This document shows positions 43,034 through 63,737 of a stretch of 64,000 nt of DNA, piece after piece (within the stretch, counting starts at the first letter, position 1; every line of letters begins with the position of its first letter). Source of the stretch: Phytophthora quininea. Its lineage: Eukaryota; Oomycota; Peronosporomycetes; Peronosporales; Peronosporaceae. The stretch spans positions 109,887 to 173,886 of the forward strand of contig JAAVTG010000379.1 in the NCBI GenBank assembly GCA_011947345.1. Direction: 5' to 3'. The notes below the pieces were generated by a model. It was given only the letters and a program-made list of their open reading frames with translations. It did not search any database and was not told where the DNA came from. The translations under genes were made by a program, and so were the position numbers.

Positions 43034-43065
43034 AGAATCCTTGTTGGCTGGGTTATACAGTGCTT

Positions 43066-43088: not shown

Positions 43089-43150
43089 AACCCGCAGATC
43101 GTAACACAAGCAGCTCAGTTATAGAGATTCGGATATGTTGATCCAAGTAG

Positions 43151-43265: not shown

Positions 43266-43287
43266 TGCGCACAAAGCAATAATTAGC

Positions 43288-43755
43288 ATGACCGACAATC
43301 AACGCCATCAAGCCCGAACCAACGAAAGCAATGCCTCGGAGGCTCTCTTGGCTGCTCACCAACTACTTTTCAGTCTCCGAGAACAGCACGGAGCCAACAC
43401 TTCCGTCGTTCAGGGAGCTGTGCGTCACATCCAGACTATGCAAGAGCGCTATCAAGAAGCCCAGGGTTTGGCAAATGAAGCCGACGGCTTGTGGATGAGA
43501 ACCACCAGCGAAAACATTGTAAATGACCGTGTGGAGCGTCGCCGGGAACATGAGTCTCGCCTGGAGGCTTTACGGCACGCGACATGATCTCGCCAGCTTG
43601 CTCTAGCAAGTACAACATCGGTCGCTGAAATGCTGCAGTCGGACGTGGAGCTACCGGAAGACACGGAGGGTGTGGAAGTAATTGTAATTGACGATACGAG
43701 TGATAGTGATAGCAGCAGTCCAGAAGCTTCGGAGCACTCCGAAGCCGGTAATTGA
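43288..43755 (+). pseudogene. Cassette A gene 1: helical protein with acidic C-terminal tail
   Basis: ATG at 43288. Predicted helical throughout (AAHQLLFSLREQHG, QERYQEAQGLANEADGLWMR), then an acidic Ser-rich tail (VIVIDDTSDSDSSSPEASEH) ending at 43755. A TGA at 43585-43587 interrupts it without changing frame, and the downstream sequence continues sensibly. The region aligns with the product at 57162-57659 (AR-LTND-VD and the R-rich block), less clearly with 58170-58811 and 55575-56252, so it belongs to a local four-member family. Acidic tails on helical proteins next to a histone gene suggest histone binding; this is inference. Confidence 0.6.
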
Positions 43756-44126
43756 AGTGGAGGCGAAGCAGAAGTGCATCGTACGTGGACGCGTCATTCG
43801 TTCTTTTAAGCAGCAGAAGTTAACACAACGCTTTGCCTCACAAGTACTTTGTTTTCATAGTTCTATTGTGTGTGTGTGTGTTTTTTTTCTTCTTTTTTCT
43901 GAAGGCTGCGTTAGTGCATTTAGGAGATTTTGATCGACGGGCACTCGTAGATTCCGATAGAGTTACTGATCAGGAGCACATCACATTACCAAATGAGTCC
44001 ATGATCTTGTGTGGCACCTCGAAAGAGCCGGCTGTCATCACCATGGCCGACAATGCTTCTACTCAAAACAGGGTTATTGAACACAACCAAATTATTTTGA
44101 TGTATTAACGCAGATCCACAGTCAAT
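43756..44126. other. Intergenic, with a TG/T-rich run
   Basis: About 370 bp between convergent cassette genes; contains a TG dinucleotide run followed by T-rich sequence near 43866-43900. No gene seen. Confidence 0.4.
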
Positions 44127-44444
44127 CTACTGATCAAACCCGTAGATAGCTCGTCCTTGGCGTTTTAGAGCGTACACAACGTCTCGTGCAGTCATCGTCT
44201 TCCGGTTAGCACGTTGCATATAGACTACAGCGTCTTGTATGAGGCTCTTCAAGAAAACCTACAGATCACCTCGCATTCGGTCGTATATCTGCGGTGACAT
44301 CCGTACAATGCCACCTCTTCGAGCGAGGCGGCGGATGGATGCGCTGGAAATGCCGTCAATGCTGTTGCGTAAGACGAATCGATGGTGTCGAGACCCACCT
44401 CTGCCTGCACCAGTAGCTGCCTTCCCAAGGCCTGGCATCTTCAT
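44127..44444 (-). pseudogene. Cassette A gene 2: divergent histone H4, one nonsense codon
   Basis: Reads MPGLGKAATGAGRGG at the N-tail, then the histone fold ([55 protein letters not shown]). A TAG at 44259-44261 replaces the Lys of the canonical RGVLKVFLE block, with the frame unchanged on both sides. The tail is unlike host H4: Lys16 is Ser and Lys20 is Phe. Like the 59-kb copy it has Asn at position 77 and lacks Lys31. Core replication-dependent H4 is nearly invariant in eukaryotes, so this is a specialised or decaying variant. Confidence 0.8.
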
Positions 44445-44695
44445 GTAGAACAGTAGATTTAGTAACGACGCTGGAGTTAGAATTTCCTTGTGCACCTACC
44501 TCCACGACTAGCTCCCTGCAAGGCAAATTGGAGAATGTGACTGGTCTGGGATAAGTGGAGCTTTGGCATGAACAGACATTAATTTTAATTAGTTCCCTAC
44601 AACGGAGATGGTGATGACATTAATTGTAATTAGTACCAAGCATCCCTTTAAAGCAAGAAATTTAACTCTTTCTTACCATCCAACCAAGCTGTACC

Positions 44696-45381
44696 CTAGT
44701 TGCTCGATGCCTTAAGCCTTTTTAAGGTGTACTTCAGCGATGACAGACAGTCCATTAGCTCCCTGTGTCTGCGATCCGTATCGCGCAAGTCTTCAGCTCT
44801 TCGCTCCCTCTTCAACGCGTCCACATGAGCCTTGTCCTTATCCATAACGCGGCGCCGCACCTCGCACTGTACTTCACGCTGCTGGAGCCACGCCAACAGC
44901 CGATCGGTTGTGAATGCGTCGCTATTAGCGGGCAACTGGATATTCGATCGTTCTCGCTCGCCGCTTGGCCTGGCTTGGTCCCTGCCGAGCGCATCAGCAT
45001 CCTTGTTCTGCATCACAGCCGCTGTGAAATCTGCTTGAGACCCACCTACTGCCAGCGATGCCGTTTTCCGCGGTGTCAGCGTGTATTCTTCTTCCTTGGC
45101 GCGTCGGACGATTTGCTGTCGCAGCTGAGCAGCCAGCGTGACTTCATGGCAACCTCCAGTATCACTAACCTGAGCATCTCGCGCAGACGTGTTCAACGCG
45201 GTCAACTTGCGCTTCAGACTAGCATCGTCACGAGGCTGCCAGTTCAGGTCATTACACGCGTTGTAAGCATCGCAACAGCAGCCCACTTCTATTGGTGAAC
45301 TGGCAACCTTGCCGCGATGATATCCAAGAGTCTCTTCCGCTCTGTCTCGGTGTAGTTCCGTACTCCTCTTGGTTTTGTCAT
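44696..45381 (-). pseudogene. Cassette A gene 3: SANT/Myb-like (DUF6818-like) protein
   Basis: ATG at 45381 gives MTKPRGVRNYTETERKRLLD, the same start as the 60-kb copy (MTKPRGTRNYTYAEQ). The SANT-like helices end at LPVHQ; a TAG follows at 45289-45291, then KWAAVA and one frame change near 45265, after which YNACNDLNWQPRDDASLKRK continues. The C-terminal half is coiled coil (LLAWLQQREVQCEVRR; TDRRHRELMDCLSSLKYTLK) and ends at 44696. The open frame that appears to continue upstream to 45667 is a fusion with the neighbouring gene. DNA binding is inferred from the family. Confidence 0.65.
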
Positions 45382-45640
45382 CTGCAGAATTGGAAACGTT
45401 GGTTAGCGCTCTCCCTACAGCACAGCCTCCTCCAGACCTTACCTCTCTCTCTCCTCGTACCTTTTTGAATGACGTCTCGACGAATGGGTGCCAACCCATG
45501 CCATAGATCACCGTTCCACTTTTTTTTAAAAATGCAACTTCAACGTCAGACGCAAACAAACAAGCTCTCCCCACAAGAGCACTCACATGAACTATGTAGT
45601 TAAGAGTACGAGCACCAAAGCAACAATACGGATGGTTGTT

Positions 45641-46075
45641 CTCCCAGCTCAGATCTCGTAGCTTCACCGTGAGCTGGCAGCGGTCTTTTGAAACAGGCGC
45701 AACTTAGAGTAGCTGTTAATGTTCACGAGCTGACCTGGGCGGGGCAAATCGTCCGATCCCGAGTCCATATCCCACATGGTGTAGGTCAGCAAAATGACAT
45801 AAATCGCTTCTTGGTTTTCAGCGTAGGTATCGCGAAACAGCTACACATGCAAGGAGTAGCAGATTAATCGCTCGTACGTATAAGTATGTCGCTGAAGCGT
45901 ACCTCTAGCAAGGCTGGCAGGGGTTCTGGGAGTCCTCATCAACAAAGTGAAGTTTCACCATGTTGAACTGCTTAAAGGTGTGTTAAGAATTCCATAGGAG
46001 CTTCATACGCATCGTCAAGCGCTCCTCGGGGTCAGCGCTGTTCGCTAAGATGGCCTTCAGGTCCGTTTTCAACAT
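45641..46075 (-). pseudogene. Cassette A gene 4: two-exon OB-fold-like protein
   Basis: Exon 1 (from 46075) has LTMRMKLLWNS, a TAA at 45983-45985, then HTFKQFNMVKLHFVDEDS and PEPLPALLE before a GT-AG intron of about 60 bp. Exon 2 starts LFRDTYAENQEAIYVILLTY and contains a beta-rich block (MWDMDSGSDDLPRPGQLVNI) and, after a one-base shift, CQLTVKLRDLSW. The intron position and all blocks match the 61-kb copy. The TMWD-G-V-I-Y pattern is what OB-folds look like, so single-strand DNA or RNA binding is possible; it is not certain. Confidence 0.55.
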
Positions 46076-46171
46076 TCAAACTCAGTACCACAAGCTTTAG
46101 GTTTTAGAGTACCGCAACAACGCACCTTCCACCTTCGTTACACGTCGCGAGTTCCCTCCTGTTGCTAAGCG

Positions 46172-46411
46172 CTAACGAAGGCGCTCGTATGGGGTGAGTG
46201 TTGCCGTATCCACGGGCTGCTCGGCCGTGTGAACCGTCCTTGTGTCAGCTGCTGCGTGCTCGATTGTAGCAGGCTTGGTTGACTCTTGAGCTGCTCTTGT
46301 AGCAGTCGTCGCCTTCACTTTCACTCCGCGGCCGCTGCTAGTGGCTACAGATTCGGGGTTGGGATTCTTTACCATGACGTCAAATGGATTGTGGGGCGTC
46401 GAAATATGCAT
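46172..46411 (-). CDS. Cassette A gene 5: small basic protein, TPYERLR type
   Basis: 79 aa (MHISTPHNPFDVMVKNPNPE...) with a middle SSGRGVKVKA block and a C-terminal TLTPYERLR before TAG at 46172-46174. Copy B ends TPYERLRQLLAE, so the TAG sits where copy B has Gln and may be a premature stop costing a few residues. Rich in Ala, Thr and Lys, without predicted fold. Not a known family. Confidence 0.5.
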   Translation of the reverse strand: MHISTPHNPFDVMVKNPNPESVATSSGRGVKVKATTATRAAQESTKPATIEHAAADTRTVHTAEQPVDTATLTPYERLR

Positions 46412-46558
46412 AAAATTTAGCTAGGAGATCGTATATCAGTGCAGGGCAACATAAGTAAAGGCGGAGGTTTGCTTATCAACCGGTTCCTTTCACCAAAAGA
46501 AAAAGCTTTCGAAGGCGGACATTTCTTTTATTTAGTTGACACTTCAACGTATCTTTTG

Positions 46559-46789
46559 CTACAAAAATAAAATAGTTGACAAGAGCTCATCTGCTTCGCT
46601 ATGATTGCATCTGTACATGGCTTGATGCATGCTCCTTAAAGCCACCTGCAGTGTGCTAGGAACTAATGGCTTGTTGAAGGTGCGTGAGTCGTTCAGCACG
46701 GACTGCGCATCGAGGTGAATAGCCTGTACGAAAACCAACACTGGAAGTGACACGTCCTGCAGCACAAGTAGCCGACAACCTGACTGCAA
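46559..46789 (-). CDS. Unknown 76-aa protein
   Basis: Starts MQSGCRLLVLQDVSLPVLVF and ends DELLSTILFL. Its position and strand match the 63-aa frame at 61960-62151 in copy B, with a weak LTLR/LQVALR similarity. It may be a seventh cassette gene. Low confidence. Confidence 0.3.
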   Translation of the reverse strand: MQSGCRLLVLQDVSLPVLVFVQAIHLDAQSVLNDSRTFNKPLVPSTLQVALRSMHQAMYRCNHSEADELLSTILFL

Positions 46790-47116
46790 CTTTTGCTAAA
46801 AAGTTACCCGCCCATCTCTCAGCTTCGTTTACAACTCAACCCACGGAGCTTTGAAGGAGTAAAGCACACATCGCTGCCGTGCTTCAGCACTCGAAGCAGA
46901 GAAATTTAAGCAAGCCGTGGCTGGAAACTTTTTTAAAAGTTACCTGCCCATCTCTCTTCAGTACTCACAAGAGTATAATTTGGCAGAGCGAAAATAGCGC
47001 TCCATGGCCAGGAATTCAAAGCTCGCGACGTCGCTGCCCACGTTCGAGCCCTCGTAAAAGAGGCTAACACAATCCTCAGACGGTAACTTTTGATAAATAG
47101 TTACCTACTCATCTAC
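46789..47116 (+). repeat. Three spaced copies of a 31-bp hairpin-forming repeat
   Basis: AACTTTT-n-AAAAGTTACC followed by CCCATCTC or a variant occurs at 46789, 46926 and 47085, spaced 137 and 159 bp. The AACTTTT and AAAAGTT halves can pair. Intervening sequence contains short open frames such as EKFKQAVAGNFFKSYLPISL but no reliable gene. Confidence 0.6.
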
Positions 47117-47284
47117 AACGGTATATTTCTGCATGGCTTTTGCATGGCTTGTATGCAGCCACACCGCTCTAGCATTAGCGTGTCTGGTAAGAGACCCCAG
47201 CCATATATAAGTAGCTTAACCACAGGATATGCGTCTCACTTTTGAAATTGCCTTCACCAGCATCCTGCTCAACGCCATCGACTC

Positions 47285-48023
47285 ATGTTTGCGCGGTGCA
47301 AGCTCAAGACTCGGGGTCACATCGTCATGTACCAGGCGGTACCAGATGAAATGGTGAACGAACTGCGAGCGCTGTCCCGTGACGAAAACTACTGGATCCA
47401 TGACACGTGGGATGGAGCTCTGCATGATGTCCATCGCCTTCGTGCATTTGTGACCAGCACTGAAGCCCAAGTGCTGATGACATACCTGAAGAGGTTTCAC
47501 CGCACATTCTACTCGGACTCTTGACTGGGTGTGCCATGCTTACTCAAGTCAACTGGAAATACCCCGACCAGCTTTCTTGCCGAGAATTTCCACCGGTCGC
47601 ATCGAGTGCAGAGTGTCTGGACGTGTGCTCGGTCCCGGGGTTGCTGTTCCTTGCAACACAAGACAGCACGTATTTCTACGTGTGTGGGTGGAACCAACAC
47701 GTGCCACTGCACTCCAACCAGCAACTAATTGAGCTGAACAAGGGTGACATTATCATGCTCCGGGGCGATTGCATCTATGCGTTGGCGGATGGCGAAGCTA
47801 CGAATGTGGTCATTCAAGCGTACATCGACAGTCCGACATTTGCGCGTCCTGCTTATCAAGCCCCAGAGATCATGGATATACCAGACGACACACGCGATGC
47901 GGACGACATGTTTTGCTTTGCAAGGAACTGCCCTTTGTCGCCGGAACCAAGCAATCCCTTTACAAGTACCTGAACTACTACCACCATTTCCACTTCAACC
48001 AGCCGCGTGAAATCACACCCTGA
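47285..48023 (+). pseudogene. Cassette A gene 6: jelly-roll (DSBH-like) protein with C-terminal zinc-finger-like motif
   Basis: ATG at 47285 (MFARCKLKTRGHIVMYQAVP). After frame changes near 47520 and 47940 it reads TYFYVCGWNQHVPLHSNQQL, IELNKGDIIMLRGDCIYALA and an end with CFARNC and YYHHFHFNQPREITP (stop 48021-48023). The D-GD-RGD-I-A and preceding beta-strands fit a double-stranded beta-helix as in cupin/2OG-oxygenase-like proteins. The usual metal ligands do not appear: no HxD at SCREFP, and Ile-Tyr replaces the His after RGD. The terminal motif resembles a C2H2 finger with one His changed to Tyr. Copy B is at 62998. Confidence 0.55.
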
Positions 48024-48431
48024 ATTGGTGGTCGCTATGTTGAGATGTATACGCTGCGCGATCGATGAGTCCGGATACTCTTGCTCCACGTCTCCTGAGC
48101 CAGATGTAGCTTCATGTTCTGCATATCTCGTTGTAGTGTGTGTTTTTCGCTTTGGCACTACATCACCAAAATGCAATCTCCCTTTTCCAAATTCAGTAGC
48201 GGGCTCAGCAACCTCCTGGATAAGCCCAACGGGATCTCTACTCAGTTCACAGCGACATTCGGTTTCCAGGACGTGTGAGAGTATGGTTGTGCCCCATACC
48301 ATACGCTGCACCAACCGGTCACGAGTAAGCCACTCAGCTGGAGAATACTGGTCTAATCGAAGACAACACTGAAAAAAGCGTTGTATCGCTTCAAACTCGG
48401 ACGGACGAGAACATAGAGATCCGGCTGCCAT
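48007..48431 (-). CDS. Unknown protein overlapping the 3' end of cassette gene 6
   Basis: Starts MAAGSLCSRPSEFEAIQRFF at 48431 and is open for about 190 residues to 47856; the first 140 look protein-like (FGDVVPKRKTHTTTRYAEHE), the rest lies antisense to the jelly-roll gene. No family recognised. It could be a further accessory frame of the element. Confidence 0.35.
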
Positions 48432-48838
48432 CTTGAAGTATCAGATGGGGTAGTAGGCACTTTTGAGCGTACTTGTCGGACGAGCAAGTAATAAAAATGT
48501 ATTTCAGCTAGCATTCAGCGCTGCAAGTTGCTGGTGATTACTAGACCGACCGAAAATGGATCTGTCGCACTGTTGAGCTACTCCACCACCAACTATTTGC
48601 TGCTTGCCGCTGAGCTGCTGCTGCTTGCACCTGCAGCACTAACCGGAATTGGGGCTATCTGTGCTCGGGCAAAAAAGCGTAGTCGACGCTTTTATCACCA
48701 CGGCAAGAGCGATCGGCGGTGCGTTAGGATCAGCAGCAGCATTAAAGAAAGCTGACAGCGCCGCGGGATCCAACGGTAGCGTCAGCGCCGTTAACAGATT
48801 GGCCTCAATTTCGTTTGGTAGCCGATGACACATCGGAT
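48432..48838. other. Stretch left of the Helitron helicase stop
   Basis: About 400 bp with short frames on both strands and no recognised gene. If the Helitron ended on this side its 3' end would be here, but I found no convincing hairpin plus CTRR. Confidence 0.35.
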
Positions 48839-51800
48839 TCATGCCATGTCACGTATCGTACATTCAATTAGTCGCAGGAGTCGATTTTCTTCTAGCAAGG
48901 CTTCTGGTGGAGGACGCGCCCATCGAACTAAGTCTGGTGTAAATGGCCTCAACGTCAGAAATGCCTCACGTGAGGTGACTCGAGAAACCAGTAGATAAGG
49001 TTGCTCGGGTTTGTTTGCTGTAGCCGTGGGCGATCTCCATTCTGCAACAATCATGCGACTTAATGTTTCACCCTGCACTTTGTATATCGTTGAGGCCACT
49101 GCACACACTTAAGGAAATTGCTGGACGCGAACAGCAAGAACCCGAGGACAGCCATGCTGAGTACCTGGTAGGCGTATCTCGCTTTGTTTATACGCTGATT
49201 GCAGAAGTAATGGAAACAAATCGCTCTCGGTAGATCCAATCATTGGATTAGCACATTCGCCCCGAGGTAGGCGAACAGTAATCGCCGTAGGTGGTTGGCT
49301 TGGTACTTTGATCATCATATCTGTCACACTGTCGTGTATCGTCCGAAACGTTGTACCGGGTGCGTAGCATACGGACTCGAGCGTTCCAAGCGTACCATTT
49401 GCCACCATTTTCTGCGGTCTCACGTTCTGCGTGAACTGTATCGGCATCCCGACGTTTAGGTCAACGTAGGGGGCCATACGACCGAACTTGGAATCCGGCA
49501 AGCTCATCACCATTTCAACCTCGGCTCGGTTGAGGCCTTTCAGCTTTCCTTTGAAATTTCCTAGAACACAAAGCCGGTAAGACATCACCAAATAGCAATT
49601 TCGCAGCAGTTGAATTGAAGAGATTGTTTATGGAAAGTCTAGTAGAATTGTCAGATGTCACGAATGTAGTCCTTTGCCCACTTGCAATCCACTGTCTAAT
49701 GTCATCACTTTGCTTGCCCACTACACGTGAATTGATTAAACTCACAAATTCGTCGCTCCATTTTCCTAATCGTGCATCATGACAGCCACGCCCCCAAGCT
49801 GGATCATCTTTAAGTCGAACTGATTCGTCCAGCATAATAACATGACTAAATGAATGCCACAACAGAAATGCGGTAAAGTCGGTTGCTGTACTCTTTGGCT
49901 TTGAGGACGGGTCGCGATAAATTGGATCAGCACCCACGGGTGGGAGTTGTAAAAATCTCCAACAAGCACTACATGAATACCGCCAAACGGAAGACCGGGA
50001 AGACGCTTAGCAATGCGCAACTTCCTGTCTAATTGAACCAACTGCAACTTCTTCATCATCGAAACTTCATCTATTATCAACACGTCAAGCTCAGTAGTGG
50101 CATCGACCGCATTCTCTCCATTTAGTTGTAGTAAGAAACTTTCGAGAGTCCTTCCTTCAATTAATGTAGCCGCTTTTCCTGTTAGGGCAGTTTTGACAAG
50201 ACATCTGGAGCGCCCCCAGCTTCTGCAAAGGCTCTGGACTGCGTCGATAACTCGGCTCTTCCAGTGCCACCCTCACCACCCAGGAAGAAGCGGGGCTGGT
50301 CTCCCTAAGAGAGTCTTCTTTATTCCCATCCACATAACTCATGCTCTCTGCTTTTTGCCATCGTGTCAAAAGTGCTACGCCAATAGATTTGAAGGCGAGA
50401 TGTTGTTTTTCATTCAGCGTAAATGATCTGGATACAGCTGCAATACTAGCAAACGACTTCACTGGACTCGGCGGTTGAGATCTCACTACTGCTGCAGGTT
50501 TCCAAGCAGTGTTGGCGTCTTCAAGTATCCGATCCAACACCTCCACAACTGCTGTCTCCTGCACGTCGGGAGGCTCTGTGGCGGGCAAACTCAGAGCATT
50601 ATCGGTGCTTGGGTCACGAATCCATTGGCCGAGATGATGTGGAGACAGTGAGTGCATTTCTAAACCCACCACAGTTGCAGTTAATGCCGTCTTCACTGCC
50701 GTGCTTTCGATCACGCCAAATTTCTTAAATGTCTCAAATATCACTGACTCTACGGTCCGGTATGCCAGTCGATGGGCACACTGACTGGTGTAATGAACTG
50801 CTTTCGAGAACTGTGTTAGTGTCCTCTGTGGAATCCCATATTCGACAGATGTCGCTTGCACTATCACAACATTCCTCGTCATCTAACACGCTGTCACAGC
50901 TGTACAGATCGTCGCTATCGGTACTTCCATCCTCAGCAGGATTAGTGCCTCTGCTATTCCGTTCCTGTGGACCTGAACAAGCTGATTCTGGATGGTGCTC
51001 GTTAGCATGGTTGAATCCGCTGTAGTAGTCGTTCATGTTATCCATTATCACTTTGACAAAGTCCGTTCGTGTGCTTTTCCACTGGTCATACGCGTGTAGC
51101 CACGCATCATCACACACAGAACCATCGCCAATGAGGTCAACAAGAGACCTGAATGGCTTGAACAGAACCAAAGACAAAATCCCCTTCTTACACTGATACT
51201 CAATGGAGGATTCTCCATTAATATACGGCAACCGATATCCTTGTACACCAGGAACCGCCTCTTGGTGTCGTTGTCCAAGACTGTGTGAGTGGTGGAGAGG
51301 ATGGCCAGACCGAAAAGCAAACTTTGCATCATTCGCATGTTCATCCTTCTTTCGAAAAAATCATCGAAAACTCGTACAGGTTCATGTTGGCCAATGCATC
51401 ATTGCGAAAAATGTAATAATCTAGGTTGTAGACTGCCTGGAAATTATGGCTACCAAACTCGCTGCTATCGCTAACGAGACGGCACGAGTACTCCTCCACT
51501 GTAAGCAGTTGACGAATGATGTCGCCCAACGGAAGCGTGACACAAGTAGCACTAGAATAGCAGCATGATCCACGATTCAGATAGAGAGCAGCAAGCGGTC
51601 CAGCAGTCTCTTGACTGTTCGTGATGCTATACACAATCGAAGCGACTCGCTTTCGACCGATTGAAAGTCTCTCATCTGCATCTCGAGCCGATGCCATACT
51701 GTCTAAAAGATCCCGTTCTTGGCGACGTTTGGATGCTCCCAATGCCACTGCCACGACAGAATTAAGCCGTTGCTGCTGCTTGGTGACGTACTTGCAGCAA

Positions 51801-55317: not shown

Positions 55318-55340
55318 ACCCGGGCCCAGTGGTCCCGGGG
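55318..55340 (+). repeat. Conserved GC-rich hairpin, copy B
   Basis: ACCCGGGCCC, loop AGT, GGTCCCGGGG; same stem, flanks (GCTT before; GGGGAA and CGCAG-TCGTAA after) and orientation as 43066-43088, at a distance of 12,252 bp. Confidence 0.8.
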
Positions 55341-55574
55341 AAAAACGCAGTTCGTAAACGTTAATTTTATCCTTTAAAGTTCTTTTGAGTAAAATCACTA
55401 TTTTATTCTTTGAAGTAAAAATAATTAAATCACTAAATGAAAAATGACTTTTGATTTAAAAATTGAATGTAAACTAGGCGTTTGCTAAACTTATGTGTTA
55501 CACACAATTTGACGCCTTTTGAGCGCATGTCACCAACGATTCACTGCTGTGCGTCGCTAAGTGACAGTAGAACT

Positions 55575-56252: not shown

Positions 56253-56430
56253 GGATACGATTCAGTCGTTTGGGGGCAATAGGCTGTATTGGTCGCTGCC
56301 AGCCTCGATCGAGGGCGTGGTGAGGCGGGTAAAAGCGCGGAAAATTCGCGAGTGAGACTTCTGGAGTTGGGCAGCCCCTCGGCTCCCTCGTGCTCCTATC
56401 GGCTAATCTAGTCTGTTGGTTTCGAAACTC

Positions 56431-56781
56431 CTATCCTCGATCCGGGAACCAGAGCATACATCGCATGCTCTCCAGATCACGGCAACTGTTTGTTTCTGGG
56501 TTGTTAGCGGGGTGCTGCAGACGCTCGTTATAGAACTCCCGAAGCCGCTGTATCACTAAGTCAAACACTGTAGTCTCCTCTGCAATGGCCTGCGGGCGAG
56601 ATTTCGTTATTGGGTTCATATCAATGTCAATGCAAAGTAAATGTGTGAGTACAATCAGCTCCGTTGTCAACATCCATCCATGGAGGTACATGAAATCCCG
56701 TTCCATAATGTGCGGTGTGGGGCAATAGTTCCACGTCTTCAAGCGTGAAAACATGTAGTGCACTGATCTCAGCATTGTCAT
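56431..56781 (-). CDS. Unknown 116-aa protein
   Basis: Open frame from MTMLRSVHYMFSRLKTWNYC to MRCMLWFPDRG, with a hydrophobic central stretch (LTTELIVLTHLLCIDID). No family recognised and no counterpart in cassette A. Confidence 0.35.
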   Translation of the reverse strand: MTMLRSVHYMFSRLKTWNYCPTPHIMERDFMYLHGWMLTTELIVLTHLLCIDIDMNPITKSRPQAIAEETTVFDLVIQRLREFYNERLQHPANNPETNSCRDLESMRCMLWFPDRG

Positions 56782-57161
56782 CTACACTTCAAAGCACCTG
56801 ATAGCTACAGCTGCGCTATAATGGTGCTCATCAACACGATGGCCATTCACAGCATGCTTTGGCACAATGTAGCACGACAGCTTGAAGTAGCACGACGGCC
56901 GTTCACAACAGTAATACGGTCATGGTTGCACCGCGATGGCCATGCCCTGCAGCATGACGGCTGTGATAAACCCAACGACAAAGATAATTGCGGGGACGCA
57001 TCCACCAGACGACGGACTAGCAGATTAGAGAGGCTTGAGTGTGCGAAGTCTAGATAAGTTACAAACCAGGTTATGTTTAGTAGAGAGAGAAAACCAACTC
57101 ATTAATTCTTAAGATGACCACCGATGACATGTTCTACTCGCTTTGTAGGTTGTTGCTAGTT

Positions 57162-57659
57162 TCAGTTCCCAATATCACTGTCGTCTTCCGAGTCATCACT
57201 GTCCCCCAGCTCAACAACTTCAGCGGCTTCCATGGCGTCGCTCCCATAAGCTCTTGGGCTGGTTGCGGCTTGGTGTTCTCGATTTGGGCTACCAGAAGCA
57301 ATAGATCGCCGGACAATCGTTGCTGGTGGTCGCGTCGGTTGGTGCTGTACACCCCGCTCCATGAATGCGGCAAACCGATCAGCTTGTGCTTCGCGGCGAC
57401 GACTGCTCTCCTCAACAAGCATTCTGCTGAACGCATTGCCACATATGAGGTCCACATCATTCGTTAGTTGGCGGGCCTGGTCAAGCGTGTGAAATCTCCG
57501 TGTTAAGCGCGACGCTGCTGCCTGGACGGCACGACTAGTAGCATCGTGTGTCTGCCATATCTGGCGGAGATTATCGTATGCGGCCAGCATATCTTCAAAA
57601 GCCTGGTTCTCTGCAGCAATGAGCTGTTGTCGGTGGTCAAGCTCCGGTAGGTTCTCCAT
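57162..57659 (-). CDS. Acidic-tailed helical protein, family member closest to cassette A gene 1
   Basis: 165 aa, intact. Helical core (DQARQLTNDVDLICGNAFSR; EESSRRREAQADRFAAF) aligns with the 43-kb product (EAQGLANEADGLWMR; ERRREHESRLEAL). The C-terminus (VVELGDSDDSEDDSDIGN) is acidic with two casein-kinase-II-like sites. Start at 57659 is the only upstream ATG in frame. Confidence 0.6.
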   Translation of the reverse strand: MENLPELDHRQQLIAAENQAFEDMLAAYDNLRQIWQTHDATSRAVQAAASRLTRRFHTLDQARQLTNDVDLICGNAFSRMLVEESSRRREAQADRFAAFMERGVQHQPTRPPATIVRRSIASGSPNREHQAATSPRAYGSDAMEAAEVVELGDSDDSEDDSDIGN

Positions 57660-57739
57660 GTCTTGTAGTTTCGGTTGTGAGCAACTTGCATGGTTTCCGT
57701 TGATTGTGAGGTTCGGTCGGTCCGTATTGGTGACATCAA

Positions 57740-58169
57740 AGTGATTGGTGTGTGGAACTTACAGATTGAAGCACTTGGTATGATTTTATAAGAATTTGGA
57801 TGGTTAATTCAAGCGGCATGACGGCCATCCGACGATGGCTTCATTAAAAGCAGTATGATGATCGCGATAGCACCACGGTAGCTCCGTTCACAGCAGCGCG
57901 ACGGCGGTGGCGCCCAAGACGCACCAAGACGGATCCATTCACAGCCCATTTACAGCAGCACGACAGAGGAGTTCAGCACCACCACGACTATTCGCCGCTG
58001 AGGGCCGCAAAACTTAGAACCATCTCATTTTTGCACTGCATTTCTGGTACCGTTTTGAAGAAATAGCACAGATGTTGCTAATGGAGATCGATCGAAAGTG
58101 ACCTCGCCGTTGAGGACGCAAGAAGCCAACTTTCATTTCCAATTCTGACACGCAGCGGGGAGGTCCCCA
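57740..58169. other. Intergenic stretch
   Basis: About 430 bp with no gene seen; repeated words such as CAGCACGAC and TTCACAGC near 57890-57975 give it a locally repetitive look. Confidence 0.35.
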
Positions 58170-58811
58170 ATGGACAAGCAGTACGAGGATGCAGCTGCTC
58201 TTCGGCTGCGGGCAATTGATGCTGAGGCCGCGGCTGTCCAGGACCTCTTCGCTGCACGACGCTGACTGAATGATGTGCACGAAAGCGATGGCGAAGAGAG
58301 GATGGCTAGTCGCCTACAGGAAACTCGTGTGGCAGAACTGGATATGGCCGTAGCTGATGCTCGCATAGCAGCAGATAATGCAGATGATGCTTGGATTGAC
58401 GCATTGCATCGGTCTGTGCGCGATGGTAGGCTCACTAGATGGCACGAACAAGACCAACAGATCACCGGTGTTGTTCGTGAAGGGCAGGAAAACGTAGAGC
58501 TCGTGACGCAGCAGCAGCAGCCGCGACTTCAAGCGGTGAATATTTTCCTGGTGATCCAAGAAAGTGAGGACCTGGAGAAAGCAGTGACACACAGCAAGCG
58601 ACTGGAAAGCGACTGCATTCGTTGAACGAAGGATTGAGTCATAACAGGCAGTGTAGAAGAAGCAAAACAAGAAGAGAACAGTCGTGTCGATAGCGAAGAT
58701 GGTCAAGAAGAAAACGACGTCAGCAACGAAGACACTTGTGGTGGATCAGATCAGTCAGACTCTGATGGCGGCTCATACGTTTCATCCGGCAACGATGATA
58801 ACGATGATTAA
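58170..58811 (+). pseudogene. Cassette B gene 1: acidic-tailed helical protein, interrupted
   Basis: ATG at 58170 (MDKQYEDAAALRLRAIDAEA). A TGA at 58263-58265 interrupts an otherwise open frame that continues LNDVHESDGEERMASRLQET and ADNADDAWIDALHRSVRDGR. After frame changes near 58620-58650 an acidic tail (KQEENSRVDSEDGQEENDVS, ending SSGNDDNDD) runs to 58811. It sits at the same place and strand relative to the H4 gene as 43288-43755. Confidence 0.5.
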
Positions 58812-58953
58812 ATTTCAAATATATTCTAGAAATTCAAACAGTTTACGTTTACTCCAGGACGCCACATCGACCCGGAAGATGCTGTCATACTAGTTTATAG
58901 TCTCATTAAGAATTGGATGGAGTGATTTTCCAATTCAACCATTTGTTTCTGAC

Positions 58954-59295
58954 TTACTTCCCACCTACGTAGCTGCGCGTATTTCGATGGCTGAATCCAT
59001 ACATCGTGCGGCCTTGACGTTTGAGAGCATACACGACGTCCATCGTAGTCATCGTCTTCCGATTGGCATGTTCCGTGTAAACCACCGCGTCGCGAACGAG
59101 GTCACTTACAAACACCTTTAAAACAGCACGCGTCTCTTCATACACAAGCGCAGACATGCAAATGACTCCTGCACGACGTGCTAGGCGACGGATAGATGAG
59201 CGAGAAATGCCCTGGAGATTATCACGCAGAATGTAGCGATGACGCTTGGCACCTCCCTTCCCAACGCCTTTGGCGCCCTTCCCACGGCCTGACAT
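58954..59295 (-). CDS. Cassette B gene 2: divergent histone H4
   Basis: 113 aa, intact. [20 protein letters not shown], then the complete H4 fold ([55 protein letters not shown]) and an extra 10-residue tail ([11 protein letters not shown]) beyond the usual end. Lys5, 8, 12, 16 and 91 are kept; Lys20 is Tyr, Lys31 is lost (SRSS), Lys77 is Asn, and VKRIS reads VICMS. Canonical H4 is 102 aa and almost invariant, so this is a variant; it could replace H4 in nucleosomes or compete for chaperones. Lies between SANT and acidic genes. Confidence 0.9.
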
Positions 59296-59645
59296 CTAAA
59301 CGAGAAAAACGTGTGAGAACGATTTCACCTCAGAAGTACTTGTCGTAGAATTAGCATATGTACGCGTTGGCTGCTGCTGCCTTGCTCGGGTTGAGTCTGA
59401 TCGCTTGTGCTTCCGAGAGGAAATTGGGAAATGGCACATCGTTCTCGCGTGGTACACTGACATGCTCGTAATGGCGTGCTGCCAGCTTCAAGCCCCCAAT
59501 AGCACATCATCTACCACACTGTCCGTTTATTAAACATTGTTTCAAGCAAGCTCTCTTCTACTTTGCGGTGACTGTTGCTGCACACACTACAATAAGCACA
59601 TCAAATCTAAACAACGTGTATTATCGTCCCTGTCAGCGTTCCCTC
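59296..59645. other. Intergenic region between H4 and SANT genes
   Basis: About 350 bp. It should hold the H4 promoter (transcribed leftward) and the SANT terminator. A CTCACACG-TTTTTCTC run directly precedes the H4 ATG on the minus strand. Confidence 0.35.
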
Positions 59646-60382
59646 TCAAACGTTTGCGATGCTGTACTTGAGCGACGAAATGCATTCCACCAGCTCTTTG
59701 TGTCTTCGTTCTGTGTTGCGCATGTCGATCTCTCTTTGCTGCTCCTTGGCTGCCCTTCTAAGCTGTCGTTGGTGCTGGTCGTCCTTGACTCGTGTGAGTT
59801 GGCGCTCTTCTCGCTGCTGGAACCAGAGGAACAGCTGGATTGCTGAACAGTGAGAATGCAGATGCTGTGAAGCACTCTCCATACTCAGCGACGCGACCGA
59901 ACTACACGATTCCTCCGGTTCTGTTGGACATTGGTCACCACACTCACTGTCGTCGGAGGGGAGCAAACTAGCACGACGCGGCGGCTCAGTTTCCTCATGT
60001 GTCTGATGTTCCACCACTGATTCTCCTGACGGGGAGGCAACAGCGTCGATGATTGTCCGTCGGTTGCGTTGGCTGGCTCCGTCAGGTGGAATCGTGCCAA
60101 GTTGGCACGCTCGATGATCTTGCGCCGTAGTTCTAGAGCCGCCTTTTCCTGCGAGTTCAGCTCCACCCCTTTCGCCTTCCGTGCTGCCGAGTAGAGCGTA
60201 GTGAACTTCCTCCGTAAGCTACCCGCGTCCCTCAGCTTCCAAGCGCTGTCTGCGGCTGTATTGTATGCGATCGCAACACCATCCCATTCAGACCGGGCCA
60301 CCGGCAACTCGTCTGCTACGACCGAAAGCAGTAGGCACTGCTCGGCGTACGTGTAATTTCGAGTTCCTCTGGGCTTGGTCAT
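59646..60382 (-). CDS. Cassette B gene 3: SANT/Myb-like (DUF6818-like) protein
   Basis: MTKPRGTRNYTYAEQCLLLS, LPVARSEWDGVAIAYNTAAD and LRRKFTTLYSAARKAKG form a three-helix SANT/Myb-like domain of the oomycete DUF6818 kind. The C-terminal half, in a frame shifted by one base near 60020-60050, has an acidic Ser-rich stretch and a coiled coil (QLFLWFQQREERQLTRV; NTERRHKELVECISSLKYSI). The conserved NTERRHKELVEC/DTDRRHRELMDC block is shared with copy A. Probably DNA or histone-tail binding. No nonsense codon apart from the shift. Confidence 0.65.
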
Positions 60383-61010
60383 CTATCCACAACCTCAATT
60401 AGTGCATGTCCACACTGTCAACACAATACAGCCCATGTCATACCTGTTTCTCCGCTTCTCCGCTTGCTTCGGCTCCTGGGCGGCCACTTCTGGAATGACG
60501 TACATCGCTGATGAGGGAGTTGTTCGATTTTTCGGCTCCCGTACTTCAATAAGATTTGGGTATATGCCTATTAGTTGTAAAAATGGGCAAAAATGGGCAA
60601 ACATCATAGTAAATTTGCATGCAGAAGTGCCAGCGTCACCAATATCAAAAAGGCCGTGCGTCGTCGCCAAAATGGGGAATTAAAGTCAAGCTGCACGAAT
60701 CTTGGTATAGAAGTGCGTCAGGATACTATGATAACTCGATTTGGGGGTTGAGTATAGCCATTCATGCAGCACAGTGCGCAGGAAAAGGTTTAGTTGGCTA
60801 GAAGTTGCCCGGATACAGAATTGTTAGCTCTCATATTAGAGTACGTCGAAGCTATTCAACTACTCAACTCTTGCAGTAGAATTGCTGAAAAGTAAGCTGA
60901 ATAACTTGTCGTTGATAAAGCGCTACCGACTACTTCGTCATGCTGTAACTACAAATGCAGATAAAGCAGGAGCGCTACTTCTGCAGTCTTTAAGTCTTTG
61001 ACAACGATCT
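60383..61010. other. Region between cassette B genes 3 and 4
   Basis: About 630 bp. Short frames exist on both strands (for example minus 60670-60395), without recognisable features. In copy A this interval is much shorter. Confidence 0.35.
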
Positions 61011-61020
61011 TCATGTTTTA

Positions 61021-61517
61021 CTAAGCGTGTGGGTCCCAGGACAAGTCCCGAAGCTTGACCGTGACTTGGCAGTATTTTCTTGAAACAGCTTCAAGCTGGA
61101 GTAGCCATTAATTTCAATGACCTTCCCCGCTGGCGGTAGCTCATTCGAAGCAGAGTCAGTATCCCACATTGTCGCCGTGAGCAGCACCGAATCAACCTCG
61201 TCACGGTTCTCGTCGTACGAATCACGAAACAACTAGGAAAAACAATAACATGCAACTTCAGAGCAGTGGTACAACCAAAACCATGGGGAACTACTTACTT
61301 TTAGCAAGTCCTCCAAGGGCTCGGGCGAAGCAGCATCGATAAGATGCAGTCTCGCTAGCTTAAAGTTCTGGTACATGTGGTTAGATGCCCACAACAACTT
61401 CATTTTCATCGTGAGCTTTTGGGGTGGCTCCGCGGTGTTGCGTAAGTTAGTCTGCAGCTCTGTAGGCACGTAATTGGCAACGAATTCGCGAATGGTGAGG
61501 CATTTTGTGGAATGCAT
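61021..61517 (-). CDS. Cassette B gene 4: two-exon OB-fold-like protein
   Basis: Exon 1 (61517-61299): MHSTKCLTIREFVANYVPTE, LTMKMKLLWASNHMYQNFKL, ending LEDLLK. A 66-bp GT-AG intron (61233-61298), at the same site as in copy A. Exon 2: LFRDSYDENRDEVDSVLLTA, TMWDTDSASNELPPAGKVIE, INGYSSLKLFQ. A one-base shift in an A run then gives CQVTVKLRDLSWDPHA and a TAG at 61021-61023; unshifted, the frame ends at 61011. Comparison with copy A shows mainly synonymous changes in the shifted frame, so that frame is coding. OB-fold-like by pattern only. Confidence 0.6.
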
Positions 61518-61575
61518 GGCAAGAAATCTTACTTGGACGTACCCTCGACGGTTGTCACGCGTCTAGTGTTAGTTT

Positions 61576-61746
61576 TTACTCTGCCAGGAGCTGACGGAGA
61601 CGTTCATAAGGCGTTTGGCGTGTTGGTGAATCAGCAGTTGTGTCGGTTTTGTGTGGCGAGGTGGACGAACACTTGGTCATTGTTGGCTTGACCTTAGCGC
61701 CCCGGCTGCTACTGGCTTCCGGTTTGTCTTTAGCCTTACCAGGCAT
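61576..61746 (-). CDS. Cassette B gene 5: small basic protein, TPYERLR type
   Basis: 56 aa: MPGKAKDKPEASSSRGAKVK, then a Thr/Ser-rich stretch, ending RQTPYERLRQLLAE. Shares SSRGAKVK and TPYERLR with copy A. Basic and probably unstructured; no known family. Confidence 0.55.
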   Translation of the reverse strand: MPGKAKDKPEASSSRGAKVKPTMTKCSSTSPHKTDTTADSPTRQTPYERLRQLLAE

Positions 61747-61959
61747 GATTCAAATTGAAGAGTGAGCTTCGATAAGCACCGTGACTTAACTGATTTGTGA
61801 CCACCTACACATGACTCGTATCAAAAGTGCCCGTTTGGCATTTTTCTCTAGCAACCGAACACTTCAGCATCACGCGCACGCGCAGCTTGAACGTGAGCAG
61901 GAAGTCCCACGTTGACACTAATAATTAGTTTTGACAGCACTTCACCGGGGCGGATTTAG

Positions 61960-62151
61960 CTAGAACAGCTGGGCTCGCCTTCGTTCCACCAGGTCAGGAC
62001 CATGCTGGGGCAAAGTACGCAGCGTGAGGGATGCAGAGGCAGCGGAGATCGCGGTAAGCGACAACGCAGGAACTTTTATTAGCTGGTTGCTATAACATAG
62101 CTTAACGTAAAGTGTTGAATCTGCCATCTTCACCTCGTGGAGTAATTTCAT
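61960..62151 (-). CDS. Unknown 63-aa protein
   Basis: MKLLHEVKMADSTLYVKLCY... ending ERRRAQLF. Occupies the same relative place and strand as 46559-46789. No clear homology. Confidence 0.3.
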   Translation of the reverse strand: MKLLHEVKMADSTLYVKLCYSNQLIKVPALSLTAISAASASLTLRTLPQHGPDLVERRRAQLF

Positions 62152-62224
62152 CTACCACTGGAGCCGCAACTGGTCTGCAAAGTCGCAAACGTGCTGGGCT
62201 TTTTGGATGTGTTGTTGTTCTTGG

Positions 62225-62430
62225 CCGCGGATTGAGCGCCTCCTTCAACGGCCGCGCGTACTTCTTAGCTGCCTTCGGATGACGTGCGTGTCGTCATCCA
62301 GCTGGTGCTGCTCCAGCGCCAGCAGCCTTTGCTTGTCCACGTCCAGCGCGTGCTCCTTCAGCGCCAGCACCTTCTGCTCGTTGGCCTTCGTGGCCTCCTG
62401 CTCACCCGTTGGCTTGGATGCGGCGCACTA
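62225..62430 (-). pseudogene. Coiled-coil remnant
   Basis: A frame without ATG reads EATKANEQKVLALKEHALDV and DKQRLLALEQHQLDDDTHV before TGA. It resembles the leucine-rich end of SANT/Myb-associated proteins. Probably a fragment of another gene of that kind. Confidence 0.4.
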
Positions 62431-62636
62431 TAGGCGCGGTTTTGGCATTTTCATGAAAAATCGGAGACTCCAACGAGAAGCTTCAACGTCAATCTCGAAG
62501 GGTGTCATTCATAAGACTCAGGCTCATCCAGGAATCGGTGGGCACGCATGAAAATGGAACCTTGCAATGAAACTGAAACAATGTGGTTTTCCTGCGTTGA
62601 ATTGGCATTCACGTAAGTACAATATTATTTTGAGAA

Positions 62637-62852
62637 ATGAAAAGAAGTGTTCCTTTGGTCTTACTTGAATTTTGTTGCACTTGTTACAGCATGGCAGCAC
62701 TAGTGAACGCTGCGCGCTCTTTGGTGTGTGAAGCTGAGAAGCAAGACCACTACGAAATGAAGGAGGGGAAGATCGCCACAGAATGTGAGGGCAACTTTGA
62801 AAAAATGCAACGCATTCTTACCGGGAAACTTCGCATTCCATATTTGCTGTGA
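62637..62852 (+). CDS. Unknown 71-aa protein
   Basis: MKRSVPLVLLEFCCTCYSMA at the start could be a signal-like hydrophobic segment; the rest is charged (EGKIATECEGNFEKMQR). An inner ATG at 62691 is a possible alternative start. No family recognised. Confidence 0.3.
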   Translation: MKRSVPLVLLEFCCTCYSMAALVNAARSLVCEAEKQDHYEMKEGKIATECEGNFEKMQRILTGKLRIPYLL

Positions 62853-62947
62853 TTGATGTGTGAGCATACCCTACAGTATGTCGAGGCATCGGCCTCCTAG
62901 CTAAGCGTTAAGTATCGCTGTTAATCTTGCAGGACATAAGCTGCTTT

Positions 62948-62961
62948 CATTCCCCAATTTC
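62948..62961 (+). promoter_or_regulatory. Perfect oomycete initiator before cassette B gene 6
   Basis: TCATTCCCCAATTT fits the TCATTYYNCAWTTT core exactly and lies 37 bp before the ATG at 62998. The copy A gene has a weaker TCACTTTTGAAATT at the corresponding site. Confidence 0.65.
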
Positions 62962-62997
62962 CCAAGCCAAGCACACCATCTCCTCTACGCGCACACT

Positions 62998-63737
62998 ATG
63001 TTTGCTCGAGCCAAACTGAACTCTCGCGGCTACGAGGTCCTGTACCGTGCGGTCCCCGACAACCTCGTCGACTATCTGCGGTCTCTATCGCTCGACCAGC
63101 AGACGCACTGATCCATGAAACTTGGGACGGTGAGACTCGTGACGAGAACCGCGAGAGAGCTCTCATTCCTGCCGAGGCGTCACGTGAAATGGCGCAATAC
63201 TTCAAGCGCTACTGCAAGACCTTCTTTCCGGATTCTACTGCTAACCAGTGGCACTTCTTGAAGACGGCAGGAGGTGCTCCGGATCAGTTGGTTCGCCGGG
63301 AGTTCTTGCCGCTGCCTGCCGGCTCTGGGTCCGTGGACGTGACCTCTTTGCCGGGCTCGGTCTATCGCAACTCAAGACGGCACCTATTTCTACGGCTACG
63401 GCTGGAACTGCCGCGTCGCCTTGCAGTCGGCATAAAACCTGATCGAGCTTAACAAAGGCGATATCGTCATGTTTCGGGGTGATTTTTGTTCGCCCGCGCT
63501 GGATCCCAGGCCAGCAGTGTGTATCTGCATGCCTACATCGACTTCCCCCGCTGTCCTCGACCCAAGTACCCCATCCTCGGAACCATGCCAGTCCTTCAAG
63601 ACGATCGCATCGTGGACGATGTGTTCTGCTACGTGTGGCAGTGCAATTTCGTCAGCGACTCAAGAAACTCGATGATCAGACACCTGAACCGCTACCATGG
63701 CTTCCGCTTCAACCAACCGCGTGATCTTGCTCTGTAG
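62998..63737 (+). CDS. Cassette B gene 6: jelly-roll (DSBH-like) protein with zinc-finger-like C-terminus
   Basis: MFARAKLNSRGYEVLYRAVP, then FKRYCKTFFPDSTANQWHFL, DGTYFYGYGWN, LIELNKGDIVMFRGDF, YLHAYIDFP and a C-terminal CYVWQC-x12-H-x4-H (NSMIRHLNRYHGF), ending RFNQPRDLAL at 63737. The finger spacing C-x4-C-x12-H-x4-H is complete here. The jelly-roll strands resemble cupin/2OG-oxygenase-like folds, but the first metal motif is not visible. Frame changes near 63105, 63370 and 63500 plus a TAA near 63436 are required, so the copy is either decayed or affected by sequence error. Confidence 0.55.

What the first reader, a model, noticed from the sequence alone, without database searches (positions are those of the whole stretch)
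43288..63737. A six-gene cassette containing a histone H4 occurs twice, collinear, around a Helitron gene
Copy A (43.3-48.0 kb) and copy B (58.2-63.7 kb) carry, in the same order and strands, an acidic-tailed helical protein (+), divergent H4 (-), SANT-like (-), OB-fold-like with the same intron (-), small TPYERLR protein (-), and jelly-roll/zinc-finger protein (+). Four of the six look like chromatin or DNA-binding functions. Seen: the order and block similarities. Inference: a mobile or viral-type unit that carries its own chromatin genes. I know of no described element with this content.
Basis: partly seen in the sequence, partly recalled or inferred. Interest (0 to 1): 0.9.

Follow-up and report, generated by a model that had tools for sequence, protein, structure and literature searches.

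The report
Jumping genes carrying their own histone
The repeated block is two neighbouring copies of a large rolling-circle transposon (a Helitron relative) in an oomycete-like genome; this transposon and many diverged relatives there carry a conserved histone H4 gene of their own, which suggests that mobile DNA can bring along part of its own packaging.

Summary
The collinear block is real, but it is not a cassette around a Helitron. The window holds two different Helitron-type elements head to tail: A (43058-55311, with its RepHel gene) and B (55312 to beyond the contig end, RepHel off the contig). B copies elsewhere (16.6 kb in C545) have fixed ends, differing flanks, insertion between A and T, and a paralogous empty site. 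Of 84 H4-like loci found in the genome, 53 lie in the right orientation to a 'jelly-roll' gene and a Helitron helicase; 42 have all five core genes, in the same order in 42 of 42. The 5 host-type H4 loci have no partner. Element H4s fall into about 11 families, are split from canonical H4s by a supported branch, are under purifying selection between families, keep DNA-contact residues and mostly lack K20 and K44. The nearest described element is the Phytophthora infestans proto-Helentron, in which I read of no histone; printed Helentron histones that I saw are broken Culex fragments. Identity is firm; function is inferred: an H4 variant that packages element DNA or its replication products. 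OB and jelly-roll folds were not confirmed; 20 of 90 Rep loci lie on contigs without an H4 hit.

The parts
43058..55311 (-). Element A, proto-Helentron-like; RepHel on the - strand, so Helitron 5' end at the right and 3' end at the left; about 30 nt of its 5' end are missing where B abuts; its 3' end differs by about 2 bp from the other copies
   Evidence: left end shared with C440, C475, C911, C719 and C75; right end compared with three A copies and four 78-83% relatives; 95% alignment of 44043-55314 to C440
43067..43088 (.). 3' terminal GC palindrome of A
   Evidence: sequence; fold
43288..43756 (+). acidic-tailed helical protein of A (frame broken after 43587); the stretch holding it is missing in C440 (alignment) and, by left-end-to-H4 spacing, in C475, C911, C719 and C75
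   Evidence: spacing; no Pfam hit
44130..44438 (-). H4-like gene of A, interrupted by an in-frame TAG in this copy; open in C440, C75, C911
44696..45381 (-). SANT/DUF6818 protein of A (broken here; open 228 aa in C440)
45667..46411 (-). OB-type gene of A: exon 3 about 45667-45842, exon 2 about 45905-46075, exon 1 (TPYERLR) about 46110-46411, with an in-frame stop; splice sites chosen by eye
   Evidence: gene model supported by P0124
47285..48024 (+). zinc-finger-ended 'jelly-roll' protein of A (broken; a 232-aa relative, 79% identical over 93% of the C440 query, in P. capsici)
48839..54737 (-). Helitron Rep/helicase of A in pieces: HUH at 52786, Y2 at 51802, Walker B at 50086 (outer limits approximate)
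   Evidence: PIF1 hit in the C440 copy
55312..64000 (-). Element B, left 8.7 kb; the C545 copy is about 16.6 kb, with RepHel in the part that lies beyond this contig end
55319..55340 (.). 3' terminal GC palindrome of B; subterminal inverted repeat CGCAGTTCGTAAACG just inside it pairs with the 5' end CGCAGTTCGTAACG (one base different)
55575..56138 (-). acidic-tailed protein 1 of B
   Evidence: no Pfam hit
57162..57659 (-). acidic-tailed helical protein 2 of B, with relatives in element family C
58170..58811 (+). acidic-tailed helical protein 3 of B (broken frames)
58954..59295 (-). H4-like gene of B, 113 aa (103 aa in 6 of the 7 other B copies read)
59646..60382 (-). SANT/DUF6818 protein of B (two frames here, 250-aa open frame in C545)
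61014..61746 (-). OB-type gene of B: exon 3 61014-61232, exon 2 from 61299, exon 1 (TPYERLR) 61579-61746; splice sites chosen by eye
62998..63738 (+). zinc-finger-ended 'jelly-roll' protein of B (broken)

Best explanation
SHOWN: A and B are two families of a proto-Helentron-like rolling-circle transposon: a 5' TTCGCAG start, subterminal inverted repeat, GC palindrome, CTR|T 3' end, insertion between A and T. The usual gene set is RepHel, a zinc-finger-ended protein on the other strand, a three-exon OB-type gene, a DUF6818/SANT protein and a divergent histone H4, in some families with acidic-tailed helical proteins. H4 is a long-standing gene of this group, not a recent capture. INFERRED mechanism: the element makes its own H4 variant, which pairs with host H3 and is put on element DNA, most likely on double-stranded products of rolling-circle replication or at new insertions; the SANT protein gives sequence targeting, the OB protein covers single strands and the acidic proteins act as chaperones. 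Such chromatin mostly lacks K20 and K44 and would escape host modification or silencing at those positions while still wrapping DNA. Probability: identity about 0.95; this mechanism about 0.4.
For: Linkage: 84 merged H4-like loci; 53 with jelly-roll and Rep downstream in the right orientation; 42 with all five genes, order H4-SANT-OB-jelly-Rep in 42 of 42. Wrong-orientation control, same 84 loci: jelly 4, Rep 4, SANT 2, OB 3, against 59, 56, 59 and 67. 5 of 5 host-type H4 loci have no partner. Of the 11 family representatives, 9 have jelly-roll and Rep; C576 has SANT and OB only, C815 OB only (C576 and C815 read from the tables). Mobility: B's 3' end CTA|T in six copies at three sites, A's CTG|T in five of five other copies, right ends of five B copies at four sites, A|T flanks, empty site on C425 matching joined flanks at 97 of 105 positions, with a 2-base gap at the junction. 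Selection: 55 pairs among 10 element families and host H4, pN/pS 0.15-0.38 with synonymous sites near saturation; three pairs within the C510 family dN/dS about 0.14-0.29. Residues: K79 and T80 in 39 of 39 sequences (32 own, 7 external), R78 38, R35 37, R45 36, R36 34 (K in the other 5). K20 kept in 3 of 32 own sequences, 2 of 11 families and 0 of 7 external ones; K44 in 1 of 32. One branch separates 15 canonical H4 rows from 39 element-type rows, support 98/95. Distant Helitrons (25-28% Rep identity) on C61, C200 and C308 have OB hits but no H4 hit within 20 kb.
Against: No expression, binding or localisation data. 20 of 90 merged Rep loci lie on contigs without any H4 hit, some close to contig ends, others not checked; so 'every element of this clade has H4' is not shown. 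11 of the 53 linked loci lack a detected SANT or OB. K20 is kept in two families, and family A has lost K8, K12 and K16 as well, so no single modification rule fits. H4 and Rep identities agree over 13 loci (Mantel r 0.63, p 0.0001) but not over one locus per family (9 families, r 0.17, p 0.26), so swapping of H4 between lineages is not excluded; most inner branches of the element H4 tree are unsupported. Recent copies of families A and B (five pairs) show no constraint: dS 0-0.026, dN 0.004-0.027. OB and jelly-roll folds are unconfirmed. Counts include allelic or haplotig contigs and come from capped searches. 32 of 47 element-type H4 sequences read gave frames of at least 92 aa; the other 15 did not. 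H4K20 methylation in oomycetes: one search, 8 of 15 papers listed, one passage read, nothing usable.
Confidence: 0.45

Rival explanations
1. Host-directed chromatin effector: the element H4 enters host nucleosomes genome-wide and changes host expression or silencing (including host histone supply), as bracovirus CpBV-H4 does in its insect host.
For: Histone-fold and DNA-contact residues kept. Precedent CpBV-H4, which joins host nucleosomes and changes expression (PMC5423620 abstract; PMC9145170 passages). 53 fully linked transposon H4 loci against 5 host-type ones, alleles counted.
Against: The bracovirus H4 keeps lysines corresponding to K5, K8, K12, K16 and K20 and has 38 extra N-terminal residues; the element H4s aligned have no such extension and mostly lack K20. 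No expression data.
Confidence: 0.2
2. Non-nucleosomal transposition factor: the H4-like protein is a histone-fold subunit of a regulatory or strand-transfer complex with the SANT, OB and RepHel proteins, TAF-like rather than nucleosomal.
For: Usually beside DNA-binding genes; loses several tail lysines in some families; Pfam TAF (8.5e-5) and CENP-T (3.5e-6) profiles score.
Against: Best sequence match is to H4 itself (E 9.5e-48); nucleosomal DNA-contact residues kept. That histone-fold profiles cross-match H4 is general knowledge.
Confidence: 0.2
3. Passive cargo: a captured host H4 gene hitch-hiking without function, as in the Culex Helentron.
For: Helitrons capture genes; a Culex Helentron carries broken H4 and H15 fragments (PMC4067079 passages). 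Recent A and B copies show no constraint.
Against: Purifying selection between families, one-branch separation from canonical H4s, fixed order in 42 of 42 full loci, frames of at least 92 aa in 32 of 47 sequences read.
Confidence: 0.06
4. Ordinary segmental duplication of a host locus.
For: Same order twice in one window.
Against: Short 66-81% blocks, fixed termini, dispersed copies with different flanks, empty site.
Confidence: 0.01
5. Endogenous virus or virus-derived element with its own chromatin genes.
For: Giant-virus insertions with an ambiguous H3 gene occur in Phytophthora parasitica (PMC8204020 passages).
Against: RepHel with Helitron-type termini explains mobility; no viral family hit among the proteins scanned with Pfam; a scan of viral contigs with two jelly-roll peptide patterns confirmed no relative.
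Confidence: 0.03

Closest known systems
proto-Helentron-Pi of Phytophthora infestans (Thomas and Pritham 2014, PMC4067079; sections 8 and 11 and passages read)
   Same: about 14 kb, 25 copies in a Phytophthora genome, RepHel, 5' TT, insertion between A and T without duplication, extra hypothetical ORFs including a 266-aa one on the opposite strand (possibly our jelly-roll gene; not tested)
   Different: described with a SET-domain ORF; no histone in what I read; 3' CTAG rather than CTR|T; our elements have H4, DUF6818 and OB genes and subterminal inverted repeats; no SET hit in the element ORFs scanned
Helentron / Helitron2 (PMC4067079; PMC5148889 passages)
   Same: subterminal (asymmetric) inverted repeat and 3' palindrome; neighbouring or tandem insertions are reported for Helitrons
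   Different: target here is A|T rather than TT; no endonuclease domain hit in the RepHel C-terminal ORFs and the gap ORF scanned
Culex Helentron-Cq-32A with histone gene fragments (PMC4067079 passages)
   Same: H4 sequence inside a Helentron
   Different: there a broken fragment (84% over 244 bp to its parent); here open in many copies, diverged and selected
Bracovirus CpBV/CvBV-H4 (PMC5423620 abstract, PMC9145170 passages)
   Same: a parasitic genome carrying a single H4 variant that joins nucleosomes there
   Different: extended tail, tail lysines and K20 retained; polydnavirus, not a transposon
TET/JBP-encoding DNA transposons and Helitrons of fungi (PMC12730594, passages read)
   Same: transposons including Helitrons carrying an epigenetic gene, proposed to help escape silencing
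   Different: an enzyme acting on a DNA mark, not a structural histone

Membership tests
Helitron superfamily (RepHel rolling-circle transposon) | HUH Rep with two tyrosines plus a PIF1-type helicase | tested here: met
   Helitron_like_N 2.8e-19 in the C545 copy, 1.5e-7 in the window; PIF1 1e-17 in C440; HUH, Y2, Walker A and B motifs in C440, part of them in the other copies
Helitron superfamily (RepHel rolling-circle transposon) | insertion without target-site duplication, empty site | tested here: met
   A|T flanks at C669, C545 and C522/C523; empty site on C425 with a 2-base gap at the junction; right flank at C320 reads C, not T, an exception; 1 of 2 flank pairs searched gave an empty site
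canonical Helitron1 | 5' TC and 3' CTRR | tested here: not met
   5' TTC and 3' CTR|T
Helentron / Helitron2 | subterminal or asymmetric inverted repeats and 3' palindrome | tested here: met
   CGCAGTTCGTAACG at the 5' end, CGTTTACGAACTGCG before the 3' palindrome; read in family B
Helentron | endonuclease domain at the RepHel C-terminus | tested here: not met
   no Pfam endonuclease hit in the RepHel C-terminal ORF of element C or in three ORFs at the RepHel end and gap of window element A; other copies not scanned
Helentron | insertion into TT | tested here: not met
   A|T
proto-Helentron | RepHel without endonuclease, 5' TT, A|T insertion | tested here: met
proto-Helentron | Rep/helicase that groups with Helentrons in a Rep phylogeny | not tested
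   only own-genome Rep pieces were put in a tree
proto-Helentron | 3' CTAG end and SET-domain ORF as in P. infestans | tested here: not met
   3' CTR|T; no SET hit in the element ORFs scanned
histone H4 | full-length H4 similarity and conserved DNA-contact residues | tested here: met
   which residues touch DNA is general knowledge
histone H4 | incorporation into nucleosomes | not testable with these tools
   needs reconstitution or ChIP
RPA / OB-fold single-strand binding protein | OB fold | tested here: inconclusive
   AlphaFold pLDDT 43; no PDB sequence match below E 1; no credible Pfam hit
jelly-roll / cupin | double-stranded beta-helix fold | tested here: inconclusive
   AlphaFold pLDDT 30; no credible PDB match

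The most novel reading that the evidence does not exclude
A large, old branch of rolling-circle transposons carries its own nucleosome component: a divergent H4, kept while these families diverged and changed at modification sites (above all K20). With its SANT, OB and acidic partner proteins it would build element-specific chromatin on transposon DNA or its replication intermediates, a structural rather than enzymatic way to evade silencing.
Probability: 0.4. Interest if true: 0.92.

Novelty: new variant of a known kind. Interest (0 to 1): 0.82.

Why it matters
Transposons are known to carry enzymes that change epigenetic marks (PMC12730594, passages), but my searches (listings only, most of them partial) showed no paper describing one that carries an intact, conserved core histone; the nearest are broken Culex fragments. 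The genome holds 53 fully linked transposon H4 loci against 5 host-type ones, alleles counted, a natural experiment in a protein known for very slow evolution (general knowledge). It makes a direct question testable: can mobile DNA escape or steer silencing by supplying its own nucleosome part? It also warns that H4-like gene models in Phytophthora-type genomes can be transposon genes.

Tried and rejected
Segmental duplication and viral origin: rejected as in the rivals. Structure prediction of the OB and jelly-roll proteins gave poor models, so no fold search was run. Profile searches of the PDB gave nothing credible for either: beta-arrestin hits at E 0.02 over about 50 residues were judged chance. 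The viral-contig scan with the jelly-roll alignment (two peptide patterns, 82 stretches) confirmed no relative. The empty-site search for C669 found only partial flank matches; C522 gave one. The idea that A+B moved once as a composite was dropped: the A-B joint in the window and the one in C289 lie at different points of A's 5' end. H4-Rep co-divergence at depth is unresolved. Fuzzy regex timed out and was redone by another method. H4K20 in oomycetes: search; the one passage read was a reference-list title.

Full report
OBSERVATION. The window is G000:C351:109887-173886 of an 87.2 Mb genome in 993 contigs and ends at the contig end. The host is oomycete-like: the named relatives of the element's jelly-roll and OB proteins are from Phytophthora. 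This is inference; the species was not identified. Comparing 42-49 kb with 57-64 kb gives short collinear blocks at 66-81% nucleotide identity and collinear protein matches for H4, SANT, OB exons and jelly-roll. Self-comparison of the whole window at E 1e-5 finds only the H4 block plus one local repeat, so this is no recent duplication.

WHAT THE UNITS ARE. DNA of B (58300-59300) has eight further copies at 93-98%. Their surroundings share a left end at window 55311-55312 and run past 64000 to a Helitron gene. The left end was seen directly in six of the eight copies, at three sites with different flanks: C669, C522/C523 and C545/C544/C527; copies that share flanks are probably alleles or duplicates. 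In C320 the end is interrupted, a terminal piece lying about 0.7 kb away; in C289 it abuts an A element. Right ends of five copies (four sites) stop at ...CTGCGAA followed by different DNA; that of C527 was not resolved. B spans about 16.6 kb in C545. Element A has the same plan: left end at 43058, shared by C440, C475, C911, C719 and C75; right end shared with C475, C911 and C440 at 96-97% and with four relatives at 78-83%; C440 is 95% identical to window 44043-55314. So the window has two elements head to tail, and the Helitron gene at 48.8-54.7 kb is A's.

TERMINI. In Helitron sense B reads A|TTCGCAGTTCGTAACG ... CGTTTACGAACTGCG-TTTTT-palindrome-TAAGCTA|T. The host base is A before and T after at C669, C545 and C522/C523; the C320 right flank reads C instead of T. 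Family A ends in CTG|T in five of five other copies; the window copy differs by about 2 bp. Joined flanks of C522 match an uninterrupted paralogue on C425 at 97 of 105 positions with a 2-base gap at the junction; the C669 pair gave no clean empty site. Short elements (about 0.8 kb) at C445 and C666 have both ends and an H4 fragment, as expected of non-autonomous derivatives. Head-to-tail joints occur in the window (A-B), C289 (A-B) and C440 (B-A); the last two lie at the same point of the upstream element's 5' end (after GTTCTA), the window's at another.

GENES. RepHel: Helitron_like_N 1.5e-7 in the window and 2.8e-19 in C545, PIF1 1e-17 in C440, HUH, Y2 and Walker motifs. H4: phmmer against solved H4, 9.5e-48. 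SANT: DUF6818 in B and C; below cut-off in A. OB-type gene: three exons; P. pseudosyringae P0124 joins the TPYQRL part and the OB part, and P0129 and P0130 join OB and DUF6818 in one gene model, so the same adjacency occurs in another species. Jelly-roll: three relatives among 249 candidates, one in P. capsici at 79%, ending in a C2HH-like motif (named by eye; Pfam E 0.12). Folds unconfirmed.

DO THEY OCCUR TOGETHER? Own-genome searches with H4, jelly-roll, Rep, OB exon 3, SANT and the helical protein were made, and all but the last were merged by position. Of 84 H4-like loci, 53 have jelly-roll and Rep in the right orientation, 6 jelly-roll only, 3 Rep only, 22 neither. Of the 53, 43 have SANT, 50 OB, 42 both, in the same order in 42 of 42; 71 of 84 have at least one partner and 13 none. 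The 13 include the five host-type H4 loci; four of these were sequenced and are identical at protein level, the fifth, C919, was called host by its score alone. Wrong-orientation controls: jelly 4, Rep 4, SANT 2, OB 3, against 59, 56, 59 and 67. Seen from the other genes, 70 of 80 jelly-roll loci have Rep downstream and 59 have H4 upstream; 72 of 90 Rep loci have jelly-roll. Against full generality, 20 of 90 Rep loci lie on contigs with no H4 hit; some sit near contig ends, the rest were not followed. The helical protein of B was found mainly in families B and C. Distant Helitrons at C61, C200 and C308 (25-28% Rep identity) have OB hits but no H4 within 20 kb. Allelic contigs inflate locus counts, and searches are capped.

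H4 EVOLUTION. I read 51 H4 sequences (47 element-type, 4 host); 32 of the 47 give frames of at least 92 aa. Eleven family representatives, chosen by me from the tree, are 48-82% identical to each other and 58-76% to host H4; nine of them have jelly-roll and Rep, C576 has SANT and OB, C815 OB only. Fifteen canonical H4 rows form one side of a branch against 39 element-type rows with support 98/95; of the ten canonical rows added there, four are chimeric gene models. Most inner branches of the element side are unsupported. Seven external element-type H4s come from P. nicotianae, P. lilii and JGI metagenomes; their Helitron context was not tested. pN/pS between families is 0.15-0.38 over 55 pairs; within C510 dN/dS is 0.14-0.29 in three pairs; five pairs of recent A and B copies show no constraint. 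DNA-contact residues are kept; K20 is lost in 29 of 32 own sequences, 9 of 11 families and 7 of 7 external ones, K44 in 31 of 32. Residue roles are from general knowledge of nucleosome structure.

MECHANISM. That an H4 gene has been kept by selection in a rolling-circle transposon beside DNA-binding genes is shown; what it does is inferred. The favoured reading is an element-specific H4 variant placed on element DNA or its replication products. Rivals are a host-directed effector (bracovirus H4 precedent) and a non-nucleosomal histone-fold factor.

KNOWN SYSTEMS. Proto-Helentron-Pi (PMC4067079, sections 8 and 11 and passages) matches in size, host group, 5' TT and A|T insertion; it carries SET, and no histone is mentioned in what I read. 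[quoted passage not shown] Full-text searches for Helitron with histone H4 (24 of 24 listed), oomycete (25 of 98), Phytophthora and histone (15 of 34), a four-term mix (15 of 135), Helentron (25 of 44) and transposon-histone phrases (none) listed nothing by title or abstract opening that describes a conserved H4. Only open-licence papers are held, and Repbase reports were not searchable. Fungal Helitrons with TET/JBP genes are the nearest functional precedent (PMC12730594, passages).

VERDICT. A real, unusual finding: new variant of a known kind (proto-Helentron-like element with a conserved histone H4). Interest 0.82.

Noticed in passing
L013 1-9484 (G000:C289:14000-23483), also C719: A third family (C) is inserted in inverted orientation near the right end of an A element; H4, SANT and jelly-roll are open there (its helical gene is broken), and nine contigs carry an identical 99-aa SANT stretch, so it amplified recently.
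   Followed up: partly
window 55300-55320, L013 near 9714, L027 near 6700: Three head-to-tail joints between elements fall inside the upstream element's last about 30 nt at its 5' end, two of them (A-B in C289, B-A in C440) at the same point, as if that end were a preferred landing site or a rolling-circle joint.
   Followed up: partly
G000:C445:22582-23405 and C666:120922-121747: 0.8 kb non-autonomous derivatives with both termini and only a fragment of H4.
   Followed up: partly
P0065-P0068, P0072 (JGI metagenome contigs of about 1-5 kb): Element-type H4 proteins named simply histone H4 in metagenomes; they may be transposon genes.
   Followed up: partly
window 43137-44042: About 900 bp with the helical gene is present in window element A but missing from C440 and, by spacing, from four other A copies.
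   Followed up: partly
G000:C574:7100-10740 and C573:886285-889910: A family in which H4 lies only about 0.7 kb from jelly-roll and no SANT or OB hit was found beside it.
   Followed up: no
G000:C521:1219761-1225878: Rep, jelly-roll, OB and SANT hits in element order but no H4 hit on this contig; not checked whether the contig ends there.
   Followed up: no
window 5563-7695 (-), 9772-13611 (-), 31009-32085 (+), 37927-39315 (+): Ordinary host-like genes left of the elements: EF-hand/IQ, GAF-domain, aldo-keto reductase and SIS-domain proteins (Pfam).
   Followed up: partly
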